A stretch of 64,000 bases of DNA, taken from Gemmatimonas groenlandica. Its GTDB lineage: Bacteria > Gemmatimonadota > Gemmatimonadetes > Gemmatimonadales > Gemmatimonadaceae. Shown piece after piece: positions 17,333-35,098 of the stretch. Below the pieces are notes generated by a model. That model saw only the letters and a list, made by a program, of their open reading frames with translations. It was not told the origin of the DNA and searched no databases. The number at the start of each line of letters is the position of its first letter. Position 1 is the stretch's first letter. The position numbers and the translations under genes were made by a program. The stretch covers positions 4,898,001 through 4,962,000 of the forward strand of contig NZ_CP053085.1 in assembly GCF_013004105.1 (NCBI RefSeq), read 5' to 3'.

Positions 17333-17743
17333 ATGCGTCATGCATTCATTCGCGCTATCGCGCTGTCGACCTTTGCGCTGACCGTCGGCGGCGCGTCCGC
17401 TCACGCGCAGGGCGCGAGCCACGGGAAGGCAAAGAAGTCGGGCAACACTTCGGGACAAAACATTCCGCCTGGGCTCGCAAAGAAGCCCGGTGGCATGCCA
17501 CCCGGTCAGTACAAGAAGCGCTACGGCACGCGCGAGGGCGCGACGGTGCTGGGCGATATCTTCGGCCGGAACGGCTATCCCGTGCGTCGCATCACACCGT
17601 ATGGTGAATCACAATACGTGTACTACCGAATGCCCGACGGCTCGGAGCGTCGGGCCATCGTGAGCCCCGGCACTGACCAGTTGCGATTCAGCAATGTGCC
17701 GGCGACGCTACTGCAGCAGGTGATCGCGCAGCTGTATCGGTAG
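17333..17743 (+). CDS. secreted basic protein with PPGLAKK/PPGQYKK repeats
   Basis: A 136-residue exported protein. The signal peptide ends near residue 26 (ASAHAQ); a basic linker carries IPPGLAKKPGG and MPPGQYKKRYG, a repeated pattern reminiscent of RcnB/CigR-like periplasmic proteins, and the rest is a small beta-rich domain (YVYYRMPDGSERRAIV). Function unknown. GGAGGG at 17321-17326 gives a good ribosome site. Its TAG stop coincides with the first bases of the tetR-like repeat described at 17740, so its 3' end may have been redefined by that insertion. Confidence 0.75.
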   Translation: MRHAFIRAIALSTFALTVGGASAHAQGASHGKAKKSGNTSGQNIPPGLAKKPGGMPPGQYKKRYGTREGATVLGDIFGRNGYPVRRITPYGESQYVYYRMPDGSERRAIVSPGTDQLRFSNVPATLLQQVIAQLYR

Positions 17744-17898
17744 CGTTCAATGCCGTCGAGCACGCGCGCGAGTCCGAACTCGAACGACTCGTCCATCGTG
17801 CGCGACGGCCTGCCCGGCGGCGTCGTGAGCAGCGCCGCGAAGTGCGGGAATCGCGGTGCTGCTGGAGATGGTCGCCCGACGGCCGGACAGCCCGCGCG
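17740..17898. pseudogene. mosaic of tetR 3' end and recQ fragment
   Basis: Bases 17740-17856 are a near-identical copy of 30968-31084, the 3' coding end of the tetR gene; read on the minus strand they encode FALLTTPPGRPSRTMDESF-like sequence. Directly beyond, 17861-17898 copies recQ around 17102-17139 on the plus strand ([12 protein letters not shown]) with two or three mismatches. Neither part can make its protein: the tetR piece lacks the DNA-binding domain and the recQ piece is about 13 codons. It is a scar joining two unrelated chromosomal fragments. Confidence 0.8.
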
Positions 17899-29012: not shown

Positions 29013-30347
29013 CTATCGACGTGTAGCGGGCGGTTGGAGAAAATCGGCGGGTGCCGACAGCGGCCCCGTCAGAGTCTGCAGAAATGCGACGAGTTGTCGC
29101 CGTTCGGTCGCGCTCAGGCGCAGTGGTCTGAGTTCGGTGGTGCCGAATGGCGCCTGCGGTGCGTGATCGTAGTGCTCGACGACGGCCGTCAGCGACGTGA
29201 CCTGCCCGGCGTGCATGTACGGGGCTCGTGCGGCCACGTTCCGTAGCGAAGGCGTCTTGTACGCCCGCAGTAATTCGTCACCGTCGGTCACCGCGAAGCG
29301 GAGCTCATCGCACGCATCCGGCTTGGCGTCGCTGTAGCGGCTCGCGCAGTTGAACTCTCCGGTCAGGGCCTGGTGCACGCCGACCGCGCGACCGCTATCG
29401 GGCCCTGCCACCTCGCGAGACGCGGCAACGCCCGTGTTGTGAAAGTGGCTGTCCGTGAACAGCGCGCCGTTGTGGCAGTTCACGCAGTTGCCCTTGCCGA
29501 TGAACAGTTGCAGGCCGGCGATCTCGTCTTTCGAGAATGCACTCCGTGTGGTGTGCGGTCTGCGTGCGAGCTCCGCGTCCACGAAGTAGTCGAACCGTGA
29601 CGGCGCGTAGTTGATCGTTCGCTCGTACGCAGCGATGGCCTTTCCGATATTGGCATAGACGCGAGACACGGCGTCACGCCGGCTGCTGGGCATGCGGCCC
29701 CACGCGGCGCCCCACACTGTGTCCGCTACCGGGCCGGCGTTGCGCGGTAGTCCCGACAAATCCGGGAGCGCGCCGAAGAGGGCCGCATACTCGGCTCGGA
29801 AGGACTCCGCAATGACATGCGCGTAGCGCGTCCGGGTGCCGCCGTGCTCCACCGCGCTCTCGAGTGGACCGAGTGCCTGCGCCCACTGACTATCAGCGCG
29901 TCCGTCCCAGAACAGCCATGGACTGTACGCCGTACCGGCCACCGGCATGGTCCGTCGTGCTGTACGGCCCACGCCGTCGGCCAGCGGTTTTGCGTCCTGA
30001 AAGTCGCGCGTCGGCGAATGGCAGGTCGCGCACGAAACGCGGTCGTTGCCGCTCAGGCGTGGCTCGAAGAACAGCCGGTGCCCGAGTGCGGCGGCGCGTT
30101 GGTTGTCGCCGTATACATTCGAGGGATCGGCCGGCAGCGGCGCCAGTGACGCGATCGACAACGAGCGGAGCACCTCGCGCTGCCCAGCGGTCCAGCGCGA
30201 CGCAGGACCGGCGATCGCATCGGGAACCATCGTTAGCAGCAGTGTCCAGGCGGCCACCCCCATTAACGTCGCAATCGGCCGCGAGGGCAGCCCACCGAGC
30301 AGGCGTCGAAGACCCACGCGCGGCGTGCGTTCGGACGTCGAGCGCAT
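29013..30347 (-). CDS. di-heme cytochrome c peroxidase / MauG family
   Basis: Periplasmic di-heme peroxidase of the CcpA/MauG family, 444 residues from the preferred ATG. After an N-terminal hydrophobic segment come the two heme sites CATCH and CVNCH, the LGHRLFFEPRLSGNDRVSC lead-in, WDGRADSQWAQALGPL, and YKTPSLRNVAARAPYMHAG near the end, all standard. The ATG at 30347 overlaps the stop of the YtkA-like lipoprotein gene, so I prefer it to an in-frame start 24 codons earlier. It may detoxify peroxide or oxidise a partner protein; which is unknown. Confidence 0.9.
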   Translation of the reverse strand: MRSTSERTPRVGLRRLLGGLPSRPIATLMGVAAWTLLLTMVPDAIAGPASRWTAGQREVLRSLSIASLAPLPADPSNVYGDNQRAAALGHRLFFEPRLSGNDRVSCATCHSPTRDFQDAKPLADGVGRTARRTMPVAGTAYSPWLFWDGRADSQWAQALGPLESAVEHGGTRTRYAHVIAESFRAEYAALFGALPDLSGLPRNAGPVADTVWGAAWGRMPSSRRDAVSRVYANIGKAIAAYERTINYAPSRFDYFVDAELARRPHTTRSAFSKDEIAGLQLFIGKGNCVNCHNGALFTDSHFHNTGVAASREVAGPDSGRAVGVHQALTGEFNCASRYSDAKPDACDELRFAVTDGDELLRAYKTPSLRNVAARAPYMHAGQVTSLTAVVEHYDHAPQAPFGTTELRPLRLSATERRQLVAFLQTLTGPLSAPADFLQPPATRR

Positions 30348-30808
30348 CAGAGTGACAGGTTGAACACGAGTGAATCCCGGCCGCTCGCCGCGCTGATGCG
30401 AAACTTGACCACCCACCATCCACCCATGTTGAACTTCATCCCTTCCACCATGTGGTCTCCGTGGCCGAGGGCGCGCGTCACGCGAGGCTTGGTGGGGAGC
30501 CCGTGCCCATGCTGCGGCATGCCACCATCAATCGACACGTTCGCGCTGTCCACGGGCACGCCGGCAGACGTCTCAAGGTGGAGCGTCCACTGGTGCAGCT
30601 TGCCGCGCGGTATCGAATCGCCCGTCGGATGAATCGTGGCGACATACAGTCCGACTTCGCTTCGACGCGTCCGCGCGTAGTCGAGGTCGGACGGTGCCTT
30701 GGCGAACATCATGCAACCGGTGAGGAGACTGAGCGCGGTCAGAGCAAGTGCGACAGCGGCGGCGCGCGCCACGGAGCGACGTACGCGTGAGTCGATGAGA
30801 GTGGACAT
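30347..30808 (-). CDS. YtkA/FixH-like lipoprotein
   Basis: A 153-residue lipoprotein: lipobox LLTGC, then one beta-sandwich domain of the YtkA/FixH type with GGMPQHGHGLPTKP and GMKFNMGGWWVVKF. Proteins with this fold are often found near copper or cytochrome functions. It overlaps the peroxidase gene by one base and is probably the first gene of that two-gene operon. The His/Met-rich centre suggests metal contact, which is inference. Confidence 0.82.
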   Translation of the reverse strand: MSTLIDSRVRRSVARAAAVALALTALSLLTGCMMFAKAPSDLDYARTRRSEVGLYVATIHPTGDSIPRGKLHQWTLHLETSAGVPVDSANVSIDGGMPQHGHGLPTKPRVTRALGHGDHMVEGMKFNMGGWWVVKFRISAASGRDSLVFNLSL

Positions 30809-30830
30809 GTGATCCTCGAGAAGGGCGTTG

Positions 30831-30865
30831 GAAAACGAAAAGGCCACGTCTGGTAGACGTGGCCT
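30831..30865 (-). terminator. rho-independent terminator after tetR
   Basis: AGGCCACGTC and GACGTGGCCT form a perfect 10-base stem with a 5-base loop; on the minus strand it is followed by TTTCGTTTTC. It lies between the tetR stop and the YtkA-like gene, and so ends the tetR message. Confidence 0.75.
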
Positions 30866-30946
30866 CAGGTTATGGCATCGGGGATCGGCGCTCTTGGACG
30901 AAGCGGCTAACGCGTTGTACGTAGAGGCTGAGTTGACGACGGTGCG

Positions 30947-31747
30947 TTAGCGCCTGCCCCCGTTGACGTAGCGTTCAATGCCGTCAAGCACGCGCGCGAG
31001 TCCGAACTCGAACGACTCGTCCATCGTGCGCGACGGCCGGCTCGGCGGCGTCGTAAGCAGCGCCGCGAAGCGCGGGAATCGCGGATCGCCGATGGCGCGC
31101 CCGAGATCGGCGCCAACCGCAGCGGCCCACTCTGCATCCGAGGTGCCGCGCGCCCGCGCCCGCGCGAGTGAGATTGCGGTGTCCGACGCGCCGCGCGTGT
31201 AGCCGTCGAGCACACTGAGCATCTCGCCTATGTCGGCCGAATCCAGGCCGGTGGTCGAGAGGGCGTCGATCACCGCCTCCGACCAGCTCAGCCAGTTCGG
31301 TCCGTGCGGTGCCGCCACGAACGGCAATTCGGCCAGCCATGGGCGTGCACAGAGCATCGCGCGTTTCGCCCGCGCCCACCGCGCCAGCTCGCTCCGCCAA
31401 TCATCGCGTGGCTCCGAGGGGCGCGGCGGCAGGCCCAGTGCCGCATCCACGATCGCATCGAGGAGTGCTTCCTTGCTGGGGAAGTACCGATACACCGCCA
31501 TCGTCGTGTAGCCGATCCGCGTCGAGACCGCACTCATGGTCACGGCGCCGAGGCCGTCCTCGTCGGCGAGCTGCATGGCCGCCCGTACGACATCGTCCGG
31601 GGTCAGCGCCGCCTTCGGGCCACGCGTGGATTGGACCCGGTCCTCCCACAACAGCTGACTGCGCCGCCGCAGCTCCGGGTCGACCGTCGCCGCCGCCTGC
31701 ATGAGGTCGTCTCGAGTCAGTGCCTCCGGCGTCTTTCGCTTCGTCAT
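30947..31747 (-). CDS. TetR family repressor
   Basis: A 266-residue TetR regulator with a helix-turn-helix (AVTMSAVSTRIGYTTMAVYRYFPSKEALL) at about 65-95 and a C-terminal ligand domain of the tetracycline-repressor type (PF02909-like). I start at the ATG 31747, which has a GAGGTG ahead; an in-frame upstream start would run through the operator region. It is divergent from an outer-membrane barrel gene, with two matched GTGTA-N5-TACAC sites between. Its last 39 codons are duplicated at 17740-17856. Confidence 0.88.
   Translation of the reverse strand: MTKRKTPEALTRDDLMQAAATVDPELRRRSQLLWEDRVQSTRGPKAALTPDDVVRAAMQLADEDGLGAVTMSAVSTRIGYTTMAVYRYFPSKEALLDAIVDAALGLPPRPSEPRDDWRSELARWARAKRAMLCARPWLAELPFVAAPHGPNWLSWSEAVIDALSTTGLDSADIGEMLSVLDGYTRGASDTAISLARARARGTSDAEWAAAVGADLGRAIGDPRFPRFAALLTTPPSRPSRTMDESFEFGLARVLDGIERYVNGGRR
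30968..31084. repeat. tetR 3' segment duplicated at 17740-17856
   Basis: This 117-base segment of the tetR coding end is the intact parent of the copy at 17740-17856; only about six bases differ. The encoded protein segment is FPRFAALLTTPPSRPSRTM and onward to the end of the gene. Confidence 0.8.
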
Positions 31748-31768
31748 CGCACCTCGCCAAAGAAACTG

Positions 31769-31796
31769 TTGACAATCCTGAAACTGTGTATATGAT
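31769..31796 (+). promoter_or_regulatory. sigma-70 promoter of the barrel gene
   Basis: TTGACA at 31769-31774 and TATGAT at 31791-31796 with a 16-base spacer, the best promoter in the window. It points toward the barrel gene at 31893 and its -10 lies inside the first TetR-type operator. Confidence 0.8.
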
Positions 31797-31822
31797 ACAC
31801 CCGTACAGTGTATGTAGTACAC
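31786..31822. promoter_or_regulatory. two matched TetR-type operators
   Basis: Two palindromes with identical arms, GTGTA-N5-TACAC, at 31786-31800 (centre TATGA) and 31808-31822 (centre TGTAG). Their centres are 22 bases apart, two helical turns. The first covers the -10 of the barrel promoter and the second the start of its transcript, so binding of the adjacent TetR protein should block it. Confidence 0.75.
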
Positions 31823-31892
31823 TAATACAGGCGGCGCACGAACGGAAGCGCTCTCGCGCCGCTTCACCATCTCTCTCTACAAGGATATCCGC

Positions 31893-32552
31893 ATGTCGAT
31901 CTCATCCGCCGCCGTCGTACGGCATCGCGCGTTCGCCACCACGTTTCGCCGCGCCGCCGGCGTACTCGGATTCGCCGCCGCCTCGGCCGGAGTGGCATCC
32001 GCCCAGTCCGCGGCCACGACCGTCGCGCCGTCGTCGCCGACGTGGGAACTGCGCTTCACCAGCGGCGCCCTCGTTGCCACCGGCGAACAGCGTAACGCGG
32101 TCAAGGACGGCCAGTTGAGCGCCGTTCAGCTGTCGTGGCTTGTCCACCCCGCGATCGCGATCACCGGTACGGCCGGATGGGCGCGCAGCCGCGATCGCCT
32201 TCTCGTGAACACGCCGAAGCTCGACGTCTTCACCGGTGACCTCGGTGCGGAGCTCCGGCCAGCCCAGTGGTTCGCCGAGCGGAAGGTGTCGCTGAGTCCA
32301 TTCGTCGGCGCCGGTGCCGGCGTGCGGAGCTACAACTATCGCAAGCTCGACGTGGATGCCACGAACAACGTGGCAGGCTATCTCGCCGCCGGCGGTGAGT
32401 TGGGTTTCCGCCGCGTCGGCCTGCGCCTTGAAGTGCGAGACTACGCGACTGGCTTCAAGCCACTCATCGGCGCGGGGCGCTCCGACACGCGCAACGACGT
32501 AATGCTCATGGCCGGCGTGCGTTTCAATCGGCACCATGCCACGCCTGAGTAG
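31893..32552 (+). CDS. outer-membrane beta-barrel protein under TetR control
   Basis: A 219-residue exported protein with a long signal peptide (cleavage near ASAQS, residue 38), then amphipathic strands with a YGLR-type end (MLMAGVRFNRHHATPE). SPFVGAGAGVRSYNYRKLD and LGFRRVGLRLEVRDYATGFKP are typical barrel hairpins of the small porin/OmpA-like superfamily. AAGGAT precedes the ATG. It is the likely target of the divergent TetR protein through the operators upstream, and the DUF2306 gene overlaps its end. Confidence 0.75.
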   Translation: MSISSAAVVRHRAFATTFRRAAGVLGFAAASAGVASAQSAATTVAPSSPTWELRFTSGALVATGEQRNAVKDGQLSAVQLSWLVHPAIAITGTAGWARSRDRLLVNTPKLDVFTGDLGAELRPAQWFAERKVSLSPFVGAGAGVRSYNYRKLDVDATNNVAGYLAAGGELGFRRVGLRLEVRDYATGFKPLIGAGRSDTRNDVMLMAGVRFNRHHATPE

Positions 32553-33273
32553 CGCACGGGGCACGCCCGGGCGGGGTCAGCGCATGCGCCCGACGATCTT
32601 TGAATGGCGCATTCCCCTCGCCCTGGTCGCGCTCAGCGCTGTGCCGGCCATCGCCGGAACAGCACGACTCGTGGAAATCGCCAGCAATGCTGCTGTCACT
32701 CCGGCCAACGCCCGATTCATGGACGCACCGTGGCCGGTGGTACTCCACATCATCGCGGTCGTGATCTACAGCATGCTCGGCGCCGTACAGTTCTCGGCCG
32801 GCATCCGTCGTCGGTCGAGCCGCTGGCATCGCGCGTCGGGCCGGGTGCTGGTGGCGGCCGGCGTATTGGCGGCCACGACCGGGCTCTGGATGACGCTCCG
32901 CTACGCCTGGCCCAGCGGAGATGGGCAGATTCTCTATCTCGAGCGCCTCGTGTTCGGCACGGCCATGCTGCTCTCGCTCGTGCTGGCCGTCACGGCGATT
33001 CGGATCTGCGACTTCCACGCGCACGGACGCTGGATGATCCGCGCGTACGCCATTGGCCTCGGCGCGGGCACGCAGGTGTTCGCGCACCTGCCATGGTTTC
33101 TGCTGATGGCCGAGCCGCCCGGCGAGCTTCCGCGCGCTGTCATGATGGGCGCCGGATGGGTCATCAATGTGCTGGCGGCCGAATGGATCGTGCGCCGGCC
33201 GTCCCACGCCGACCGGCGTCGCCGCGATCCCAGTTTGCCCGCTGAGCTCGTGGTGGCACCACTTTCGCACTGA
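32536..33273 (+). CDS. DUF2306 multi-pass membrane protein
   Basis: A 245-residue integral membrane protein with six or seven helices, of the DUF2306 type. Conserved-looking His residues sit in the helices (VVLHIIAVVIYSMLGAVQF, RWHRASGRVLVAAG, DFHAHGRWMIRAYA, FAHLPWF), a pattern that could hold heme or metal. ATG 32536 overlaps the barrel gene by 17 bases; ATG 32584 is a possible alternative start. It would come under the same TetR-controlled promoter. Function unknown. Confidence 0.75.
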   Translation: MPRLSSARGTPGRGQRMRPTIFEWRIPLALVALSAVPAIAGTARLVEIASNAAVTPANARFMDAPWPVVLHIIAVVIYSMLGAVQFSAGIRRRSSRWHRASGRVLVAAGVLAATTGLWMTLRYAWPSGDGQILYLERLVFGTAMLLSLVLAVTAIRICDFHAHGRWMIRAYAIGLGAGTQVFAHLPWFLLMAEPPGELPRAVMMGAGWVINVLAAEWIVRRPSHADRRRRDPSLPAELVVAPLSH

Positions 33274-33379
33274 ACAGCACTTACGGCCGGGTCCGGTCGC
33301 AGACATCTGCTCATTTCGGAGGCTCGGCGTGGCACAACGGCTCATTCGACACGGAATCCCGGCGCGGCGAACTGGCGTC

Positions 33380-35098
33380 ATGAGCGCCACGCGACGCGGC
33401 GTGCTGCTCACCTGCAGCCTCGCGGCGCTACTCGTTGTCGGCTGCAAGGGGCGCACGGCACCTAATGCCGCCAAGGAATGGACGCCGAGCCCGGGCGACT
33501 TGGTGATGGGCGTGCCGATCGGCGACGTCACGTCATCGATTCAGGCGCAGCTCGCTACGCGGCCGGAAAGCGTCCCCGCCGACCGGTGGCGGCACATCAA
33601 GCAGCTGTACACGACGTACGGGAACGTTCCGCTCTGGCTTGAAAAGGACGGATTCAGTCAATCGCGCAGTAAGGCGTTGTTGCGCGCGGTGGTCGATGTG
33701 CGCACCGACGCCCTCCGACTCGACGGGTATCCACTTGATGAACTGGTCGCGACGGTGGGTGCCGTGCAGGCGACGAAACAGGCAAGTGCGACGCAGCTGG
33801 CGAACGCTGACGTACTTCTCACGGCGACCTACGTGGAGCTCGCCGAGGATCTCCTCACGGGACAAGTCGACCCCAAGTCGATCGAGCAGGACTGGCACAT
33901 TGCGGTGGGTCACGAGCCGATCGACAGTGCGGTCGCGCGCAGCCTTCGTGATCCGCAACTCGACTCGGCCATCGCTCGCATGCGTCCGCGTGACGCCGAC
34001 TACGACGCGTTGCGTCGGTCGCTCGTGCGCTTCCAGTCTATCGTGGCTGGTGGCGGATGGGCGGTGGTGCCGGCTGGGAAGGCACTCAAGCCCCGTCAGG
34101 CGGACAAACCGGCGCGCATCGCAGCGCTTCGTGAGCGTCTTCGGGTCGAGGGTTTCGGTGCACCGGGCGGTGCATCGGGGGCGGCATCGGACGTGGCGCC
34201 GTCCGGGGCGGCAGGCGCGAACGTCTACAACACCGAGCTGGCGGGGCTCGTCGCCGACTTCCAGGCGCGACACGGCATTGCCGTTGATAGCGCACTCGGC
34301 GCCGAAACGATGCAGTCGCTGAACGTGCCCGCGCAGTATCGACTGGCGCAGATTGCCGCCAATCTCGAGCGGTATCGCTGGCTGCCGCGCTCGTTCGGCG
34401 GTCGGTACATCATCGTGAATGTCCCCGCGTTCCGGCTCGAGGCGCACGATTCGACGAGTACGCTCGAGATGAAGGTGATCGTCGGCGAGGAATTCGAGGG
34501 CAAGACGACGCCCGTATTCGCCGACTCCATGGAGACCGTCGTGTTTCGTCCGTACTGGAACATCACGCCGGACATTCAAGAGAAGGAAACGGAGCCCAAG
34601 ATCGCTGAGGACTCGAAGTACATGGAGGCGAACGATCTGGAGTATTTCAAGGATGGTGGCGAGACGCGTATCAGGCAGAAGCCGGGGCCGAAGAACTCCT
34701 TGGGTCTGGTGAAGTTCCTGTTCCCGAACGCGTTCAACATCTACCTCCACGATACGCCCGACGATGCGCTGTTTGCGAAGGATGTGCGCGCCTTCAGCCA
34801 TGGGTGCATTCGTCTCGAGAAGCCCGACGAGCTCGCGCAGTGGGTACTCGGTTGGGAGCCAGCGCGCGTCGACTCCGCGATGCAGCAGGGCACGGACAAC
34901 CAGTCCACGAAGCTCGCGAAGAAAATTCCCGTGTACATCGTGTACGCGACGGCCTACGAGCGCGACGGACAACTCTACTTCGGCAACGATTTGTACAGCC
35001 GTGATGCGGCGCTGGTGAAGGCCGTGTCGGGGAGCATCGCACCGACGGAAACCGCGCTGCGGAGTCTCGAAGCACTGCGTAAGCTGGTGCAGGATTGA
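33380..35098 (+). CDS. YcbB-type L,D-transpeptidase lipoprotein
   Basis: Murein L,D-transpeptidase of the YcbB/LdtD class (572 residues). Order: lipoprotein signal with VVGC, a scaffold region, a peptidoglycan-binding PG_binding_1 domain (LVADFQARHGIAVDSALGAETMQSLN) and a YkuD catalytic domain with HGCIRL; His474 and Cys476 are the active pair. It forms 3-3 cross-links or attaches proteins to the wall in the periplasm. An Ala/Gly/Ser linker at about 258-278 separates scaffold and binding domain. I start at ATG 33380, directly before the lipoprotein signal; the frame is open upstream but overlaps the DUF2306 gene. Confidence 0.9.
   Translation: MSATRRGVLLTCSLAALLVVGCKGRTAPNAAKEWTPSPGDLVMGVPIGDVTSSIQAQLATRPESVPADRWRHIKQLYTTYGNVPLWLEKDGFSQSRSKALLRAVVDVRTDALRLDGYPLDELVATVGAVQATKQASATQLANADVLLTATYVELAEDLLTGQVDPKSIEQDWHIAVGHEPIDSAVARSLRDPQLDSAIARMRPRDADYDALRRSLVRFQSIVAGGGWAVVPAGKALKPRQADKPARIAALRERLRVEGFGAPGGASGAASDVAPSGAAGANVYNTELAGLVADFQARHGIAVDSALGAETMQSLNVPAQYRLAQIAANLERYRWLPRSFGGRYIIVNVPAFRLEAHDSTSTLEMKVIVGEEFEGKTTPVFADSMETVVFRPYWNITPDIQEKETEPKIAEDSKYMEANDLEYFKDGGETRIRQKPGPKNSLGLVKFLFPNAFNIYLHDTPDDALFAKDVRAFSHGCIRLEKPDELAQWVLGWEPARVDSAMQQGTDNQSTKLAKKIPVYIVYATAYERDGQLYFGNDLYSRDAALVKAVSGSIAPTETALRSLEALRKLVQD

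What the first reader, a model, noticed from the sequence alone, without database searches (positions are those of the whole stretch)
31769..31822. Two identical-arm TetR operators on a strong promoter
Both sites are GTGTA-N5-TACAC, 22 bases centre to centre, one covering the -10 and one the transcript start. Two turns of spacing on the same face suggests paired or cooperative dimers. The controlled genes are an outer-membrane barrel and a DUF2306 membrane protein, so the TetR ligand probably concerns the envelope.
Basis: partly seen in the sequence, partly recalled or inferred. Interest (0 to 1): 0.5.

Follow-up and report, generated by a model that had tools for sequence, protein, structure and literature searches.

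The report
Conserved paired TetR operators on promoter
Two adjacent copies of a repressor's DNA landing site sit on the promoter of an outer-membrane barrel and membrane-protein operon, and relatives in two bacterial phyla keep the same arrangement, so this is a real gene switch of an ordinary, well-understood type.

Summary
Confirmed as real regulatory DNA. The two GTGTA-N5-TACAC sites (31786-31800 and 31808-31822, 22 bp apart) lie on an 11/12 sigma-70 promoter between a TetR-family gene and a divergent barrel + DUF2306 operon. Comparison ties them to this TetR: of 36 orthologue loci with readable upstream DNA (Gemmatimonadota, Acidobacteriota), 35 carry a site and 27 the pair, always 21-23 bp apart; 1,800 shuffled regions gave no pair. 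A paired-site pattern hit 15 of 395 phylum genomes, all TetR carriers; the reversed control hit none. In one draft genome tetR and operon lie on different contigs: the operon keeps the pair, tetR a single site. Eight genomes with DUF2306 but no TetR orthologue found lack such sites. Best explanation: an inducible repressor blocking the -10 and first transcribed bases; self-repression is inferred. It works like SimR, its nearest solved relative. Cooperativity is possible, not shown: constant two-turn spacing favours it, natural single-site loci show it is dispensable. The envelope-ligand guess is weak, because the same regulator and site front a probably secreted repeat protein in some Acidobacteria, and an alpha/beta-hydrolase in distant relatives. 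New member of a known kind.

The parts
31786..31800 (.). Operator 1, GTGTATATGATACAC, overlaps the -10
   Evidence: conserved in orthologues
31808..31822 (.). Operator 2, GTGTATGTAGTACAC, about +6 to +20
   Evidence: conserved; not recognisable in 6 Holophagaceae loci
31781..31785 (.). Conserved outer flank AAACT of operator 1
   Evidence: Identical in 12 of 12 aligned loci; AACT...AGTT flanks in single-site relative L106
31823..31826 (.). Conserved outer flank TAAT of operator 2
   Evidence: Identical in 12 of 12 aligned loci; not kept in the 21- and 23-bp loci
31769..31774 (+). -35 element TTGACA
31791..31796 (+). -10 element TATGAT
30947..31747 (-). tetR gene, 266 aa, TetR_N + TetR_C_1, with an N-terminal extension of about 50 residues before the HTH domain
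   Evidence: start at 31747 by orthologue alignment
30840..30866 (-). Terminator-like hairpin behind tetR (12 pairs, T-rich tail)
   Evidence: 4 terminator-like sites found in the stretch, 1.1 expected; this is the longest stem
31893..32552 (+). Small outer-membrane barrel, 219 aa, 8 long strands predicted
   Evidence: orthologue alignment
32584..33273 (+). DUF2306 membrane protein (start 32584 preferred to 32536)

Best explanation
The two sites are operators of the TetR-family protein encoded next door (30947-31747, minus strand). Without inducer, one dimer on operator 1 covers the -10 element and a second on operator 2 covers the first transcribed bases, so RNA polymerase cannot use the strong promoter of the barrel-DUF2306 operon. 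Since the sites lie within 38-75 bases upstream of the tetR start codon, the repressor very likely limits its own transcription as well. A small ligand, most likely a hydrophobic compound as for SimR-type relatives, releases it. Shown here: sites, promoter match, conservation, co-occurrence with this TetR, and presence before the operon in a genome where tetR is on another contig. Inferred: binding itself, repression, autoregulation, ligand type.
For: Pairs (each site 8 of 10 or better) in 27 of 36 TetR orthologue loci with readable upstream DNA, at least one site of 9 of 10 or better in 35 of 36; spacing 22 (13), 21 (11) or 23 (3) although 18-27 was allowed; of 1,800 dinucleotide-shuffled regions 9 had such a site and 0 a pair. 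Pair pattern in 15 of 395 phylum genomes, all 15 among the 19 TetR carriers, reversed control 0. In G034 the pair fronts barrel-DUF2306 on contig C45 while tetR sits on C63 with one site. All 17 genomes with DUF2306 and TetR have a pair in front of that operon; 0 of 8 with DUF2306 but no TetR orthologue found have a site better than 8 of 10 in the fetched locus. In 12 loci with 22-bp spacing, TTGACA, GAAACT and TAAT, none of them used to pick the alignment, are 92-100% identical, against a mean majority of 0.51 upstream and 0.50 downstream. Not coding: the offset to the tetR start falls in all three frames. Seven paralogous TetRs with another recognition helix have no upstream site better than 8 of 10. 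TetR fold, best match SimR apo and DNA-bound.
Against: No binding or expression data. Genome-wide, the bare motif is at chance frequency. One orthologue locus (L098, N-terminally incomplete TetR) has no site though upstream DNA is present. In G315 no DUF2306 was found, and in G244 only a barrel remnant is left, so the controlled unit is not fixed. G034 is a draft genome, so wrong binning of a contig is not excluded. One search scored only the six best candidates in each genome, so an absent TetR there is likely but not proven.
Confidence: 0.87

Rival explanations
1. The two dimers bind cooperatively through contacts across the 7-bp gap, and cooperativity is what selection keeps.
For: All 27 pairs, and the four Streptomyces pairs, lie 21-23 bp apart, two helical turns, although four of the seven gap positions vary in the 22-bp loci (majority 0.42-0.67); on the tree the spacing largely follows TetR clades.
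Against: Operator 1 is tied to the -10 and operator 2 may simply be tied to the transcript start, which would fix the spacing without contacts. All six Holophagaceae loci keep only operator 1 although their neighbour is also the barrel; L106, L108 and L110 have single sites.
Confidence: 0.4
2. Two independent operators without contacts: both strengthen repression, and one of them serves tetR.
For: In G034 the tetR on its own contig keeps one good site in front of it while the operon keeps both.
Against: A purely tetR-directed second site would not be expected to stay with the separated operon, as it does in G034; the constant spacing is then unexplained unless tied to the transcript start.
Confidence: 0.45
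3. The palindromes are recognised by a different regulator and lie next to tetR by coincidence.
For: No direct binding data.
Against: Co-occurrence with this TetR in 15 of 15 pattern-bearing genomes, and no site beside the same operon in 8 of 8 genomes where no TetR orthologue was found.
Confidence: 0.05
4. The protein is an activator or acts in both ways.
For: Some TetR-family proteins activate (recalled general knowledge).
Against: Sites overlap the -10 and the first transcribed bases of a promoter with near-consensus hexamers, a repressing position.
Confidence: 0.04

Closest known systems
SimR (SimReg2)/SimX of Streptomyces antibioticus, PDB 2y2z, 3zql
   Same: Best sequence match in the PDB (E 2.2e-26) and best fold match (Z 19.8 and 19.6); repressor gene divergent from its target; two operators in the intergenic region (review PMC5812520, passages); N-terminal extension.
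   Different: About 29% identity; target here is a barrel + DUF2306 operon, not an MFS efflux pump; recognition helix TTMAVYRY here against GTMSLYYY in SimR; ligand unknown; SimR operator sequence not compared.
Tn10 TetR/TetA with tandem tet operators (recalled)
   Same: TetR_C_1 domain; divergent genes and two palindromic operators over the promoters (recalled for Tn10).
   Different: Operator sequence and spacing differ (recalled); no tetracycline pump beside this tetR.
PamR2 (5ojy) and ActR (2opt, 3b6a)
   Same: Same fold group, solved with pamamycin and actinorhodin.
   Different: Weaker matches (Z 18.3 and 17.5); their targets were not examined here.
DUF2306 protein PraC (pramanicin epoxidation, PMC12895699, passages)
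   Same: Same Pfam family as the second gene of the operon.
   Different: Fungal biosynthetic cluster; no evidence that the bacterial protein does this reaction.

Membership tests
TetR family of transcription repressors | TetR_N HTH domain plus alpha-helical ligand domain | tested here: met
   PF00440 5.6e-13 and PF02909 8.1e-22; fold
TetR family of transcription repressors | Palindromic operator near its own or the adjacent gene | tested here: met
   Site of 9 of 10 or better in 35 of 36 orthologue loci
TetR family of transcription repressors | Binding of the operator by the protein, released by a ligand | not testable with these tools
   Needs gel shift / footprinting
SimR-type repressor | Closest sequence and fold relative | tested here: met
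SimR-type repressor | Two operators between divergent genes | tested here: met
   SimR side from PMC5812520
SimR-type repressor | Target is an MFS efflux pump for the ligand | tested here: not met
   Neighbouring operon is barrel + DUF2306
SimR-type repressor | N-terminal extension contacts the minor groove | tested here: inconclusive
   Extension present in all 18 aligned orthologues, low model confidence there; contact untested
DUF2306 (PF10067) | Pfam match above gathering score | tested here: met
   108.1 bits against 31.6
Small 8-stranded outer-membrane barrel (OmpA/OmpX/OmpW/NspA type) | Export signal and eight long antiparallel strands | tested here: inconclusive
   N-terminal helix and eight long strands predicted, mean pLDDT 74.5; matches to OmpA, NspA, OmpW at E 7.8e-8 to 1e-3; no Pfam match

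The most novel reading that the evidence does not exclude
The regulator together with its two-operator promoter is a portable switch that has been joined to unrelated genes (barrel + DUF2306, a probably secreted repeat protein, an alpha/beta-hydrolase) in Gemmatimonadota, Acidobacteriota and Streptomyces, with the operator sequence and the recognition helix kept while the cargo changed; the cargos would then be alternative answers to one shared hydrophobic signal.
Probability: 0.3. Interest if true: 0.55.

Novelty: new member of a known kind. Interest (0 to 1): 0.4.

Why it matters
It gives a defined operator (outer flank AACT, core GTGTAYNNNRTACAC) to a TetR subfamily for which six full-text searches listed no published operator, and a ready promoter-repressor pair from Gemmatimonadota. 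It also ties two uncharacterised envelope genes to a probably ligand-responsive switch, so finding the ligand would be a direct route to the role of a bacterial DUF2306 protein. The natural series of single, 21-, 22- and 23-bp spaced sites is a good test set for whether neighbouring TetR dimers cooperate.

Tried and rejected
Coding explanation for the conserved stretch: the tetR reading frame is open through the operators (ORF 30947-31870), but the distance to the tetR start falls in all three frames among relatives, so the conservation is of DNA. A larger regulon in this genome: with up to one mismatch there are 24 places against 16 in the reversed control; I did not inspect the other places one by one, so a few further targets are not excluded. 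A separate promoter for tetR: none found on the minus strand by the sigma-70 consensus scan. Literature: six full-text searches, of which I saw the listings only, for this operator, for DUF2306 with TetR, for DUF2306 alone, for Gemmatimonadota TetR operators and for paired TetR operators listed nothing on this system; the PraC paper they listed was then read in passages. The SimR-DNA paper is not held, so the SimR operator sequence was not compared. Limits of the surveys: one search used two peptide patterns and kept 80 of 99 confirmed stretches, so it is a partial list of relatives; one search scored six candidates in each genome.

Full report
Observation. GTGTATATGATACAC spans 31786-31800 and GTGTATGTAGTACAC 31808-31822, 22 bp centre to centre. 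The promoter scan finds TTGACA-16-TATGAT, 11 of 12, as the only sigma-70-like site in 30780-33500. Of 20,000 dinucleotide shuffles of the intergenic stretch none had two exact sites and 6 had at least one. The bare motif is not rare in the 5.18-Mb genome: 3 exact places against 4 for the reversed pattern. The stricter GTGTAYNNNRTACAC occurs exactly only here, twice; with up to one mismatch there are 24 places against 16.

Neighbours. tetR (30947-31747, minus) has TetR_N and TetR_C_1 domains. It ends before a 12-pair terminator-like hairpin at 30866-30840, so it is probably transcribed alone. On the plus strand follow a 219-aa protein predicted as an N-terminal helix plus eight long strands (mean pLDDT 74.5), structurally nearest OmpA, NspA and OmpW, and a DUF2306 protein. 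By alignment the DUF2306 start is 32584 rather than 32536.

Conservation. I gathered 20 TetR loci with whole-genome searches (19 of 395 phylum genomes at E up to 1e-30; plus G007). L099 starts inside the gene, so 36 loci have readable upstream DNA. Recounted: at least one site of 9 of 10 or better in 35 (the miss is L098); both sites at 8 of 10 or better in 27, and although spacings of 18-27 were allowed, 13 are at 22 bp, 11 at 21 and 3 at 23. Of 1,800 dinucleotide-shuffled regions 9 had a site of that quality and none a pair. The nine without a pair are G034 (single site), G270 (44% identity; second site only 7 of 10), six Holophagaceae (operator 1 only) and L098. Beyond these, four Streptomyces relatives at 36-38% identity have pairs at 21 bp, and L106, L108, L110 have single sites, the first with the symmetrical flanks AACT...AGTT.

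The block as a whole. In 12 whole-genome loci with 22-bp spacing the block from the -35 to TAAT has mean majority 0.86 against 0.51 upstream and 0.50 downstream. That figure is partly circular, because the alignment was anchored on the sites. The 38 columns of the block that were not used for anchoring still average 0.80, and TTGACA, GAAACT and TAAT are 92-100% identical. In the 7-bp gap two positions are invariant and the others vary. The distance from site 1 to the tetR start falls in all three frames, so this is conservation of DNA.

Link to this TetR. A paired-site pattern, searched in 395 genomes without using the protein, hit 15 genomes, once each; the reversed control hit none. All 15 are among the 19 TetR carriers. 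In G034 the pair lies on contig C45 before barrel-DUF2306, while tetR lies on C63 with one site; it is a draft genome, so a binning error is not excluded. DUF2306 orthologues (E up to 1e-25) occur in 25 of 395 genomes. The 17 that also have the TetR all have a pair before that operon. In the 8 where no TetR orthologue was found, no site in the fetched locus (about 1.5 kb each side) is better than 8 of 10, although 6 of the 8 still have the barrel. One of them, G371, has a MalT/LuxR-type regulator upstream instead. These counts are not corrected for relatedness. Seven paralogous TetRs from relatives and this genome, with helices such as EAMSLYNH, have no site better than 8 of 10 in 400 bases upstream. 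In every close and distant relative read, the recognition helix is TTMA(L/I/V/T)YRY, or the variants TPMALYRY, TAMALYRY or STMALYRY.

Cargo. Barrel and DUF2306 lie beside the TetR in 16 of the 20 whole-genome loci; G315 has only the barrel, G244 has DUF2306 and a barrel remnant, G034 is split, G270 has neither. Of the 17 further loci, L081, L085, L088, L096 and L103 have both. L084, L093 and L095 have the barrel with no DUF2306 found; the contig ends inside the barrel in L084 and about 200 bases after it in L095. L086, L089, L091, L092, L094, L101 and L102 have a probably secreted repeat protein, with no Pfam match in the one tested (L091). L098 and L099 showed neither gene. The distant relatives L104-L110 have an alpha/beta-hydrolase (read by eye; Pfam tested on L106 only). 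On the TetR tree Acidobacteriota rows lie among Gemmatimonadota rows, but the forks that mix them have only moderate support (88/52 and 94/87), 13 forks are open and the root is a midpoint. Spacing largely follows the clades. The mixed cargo weakens any reading of the ligand from the target genes.

Mechanism. The positions of the sites, over the -10 and just after the start, are those of a repressor. SimR is the nearest solved protein by sequence and by fold (Z 19.8), and it also uses two operators between divergent genes (PMC5812520, passages). I therefore propose inducible repression of the operon and, by position, of tetR itself. The N-terminal extension, present in all 18 aligned orthologues, and the conserved A/T-rich outer flanks suggest a minor-groove contact, as the title of the SimR-DNA paper states for SimR (seen in the reference list); this is inference. 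Two dimers on one face is consistent with the spacing. Whether they touch is open: operator 2 is not recognisable in six Holophagaceae loci that keep the barrel.

Novelty. The kind of system is textbook. What is new is this operator, its conservation across phyla and its link to barrel-DUF2306; six literature searches, seen as listings, showed nothing on it. The only function for a DUF2306 protein that I saw is epoxidation by fungal PraC (PMC12895699, passages); it cannot be transferred without tests.

Noticed in passing
window 17740-17865 (minus): A 126-base copy of the tetR 3' end (residues 219-260, 88% identical) sits behind an unrelated ORF; a partial duplication.
   Followed up: partly
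window 29016-30811 (minus): A YtkA-like gene and a di-haem cytochrome c peroxidase gene (CCP_MauG) follow tetR beyond the terminator-like hairpin.
   Followed up: partly
L160 (genome G371), reverse strand: The same barrel-DUF2306 operon, without the TetR, has a MalT/LuxR-type regulator directly upstream: apparent regulator replacement.
   Followed up: partly
L102: A metagenome bin titled Bordetella parapertussis carries a TetR locus that groups with Acidobacteriota rows; the label looks wrong.
   Followed up: no
window 32584-33273: Four histidines (55, 82, 147, 168) are invariant or nearly so in 18 DUF2306 relatives, which might bind haem.
   Followed up: no
L043 and L044 (G099, G115): The outer half-sites of both operators read GTTTA and TAAAC, mirrored about the centre of the pair.
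   Followed up: no
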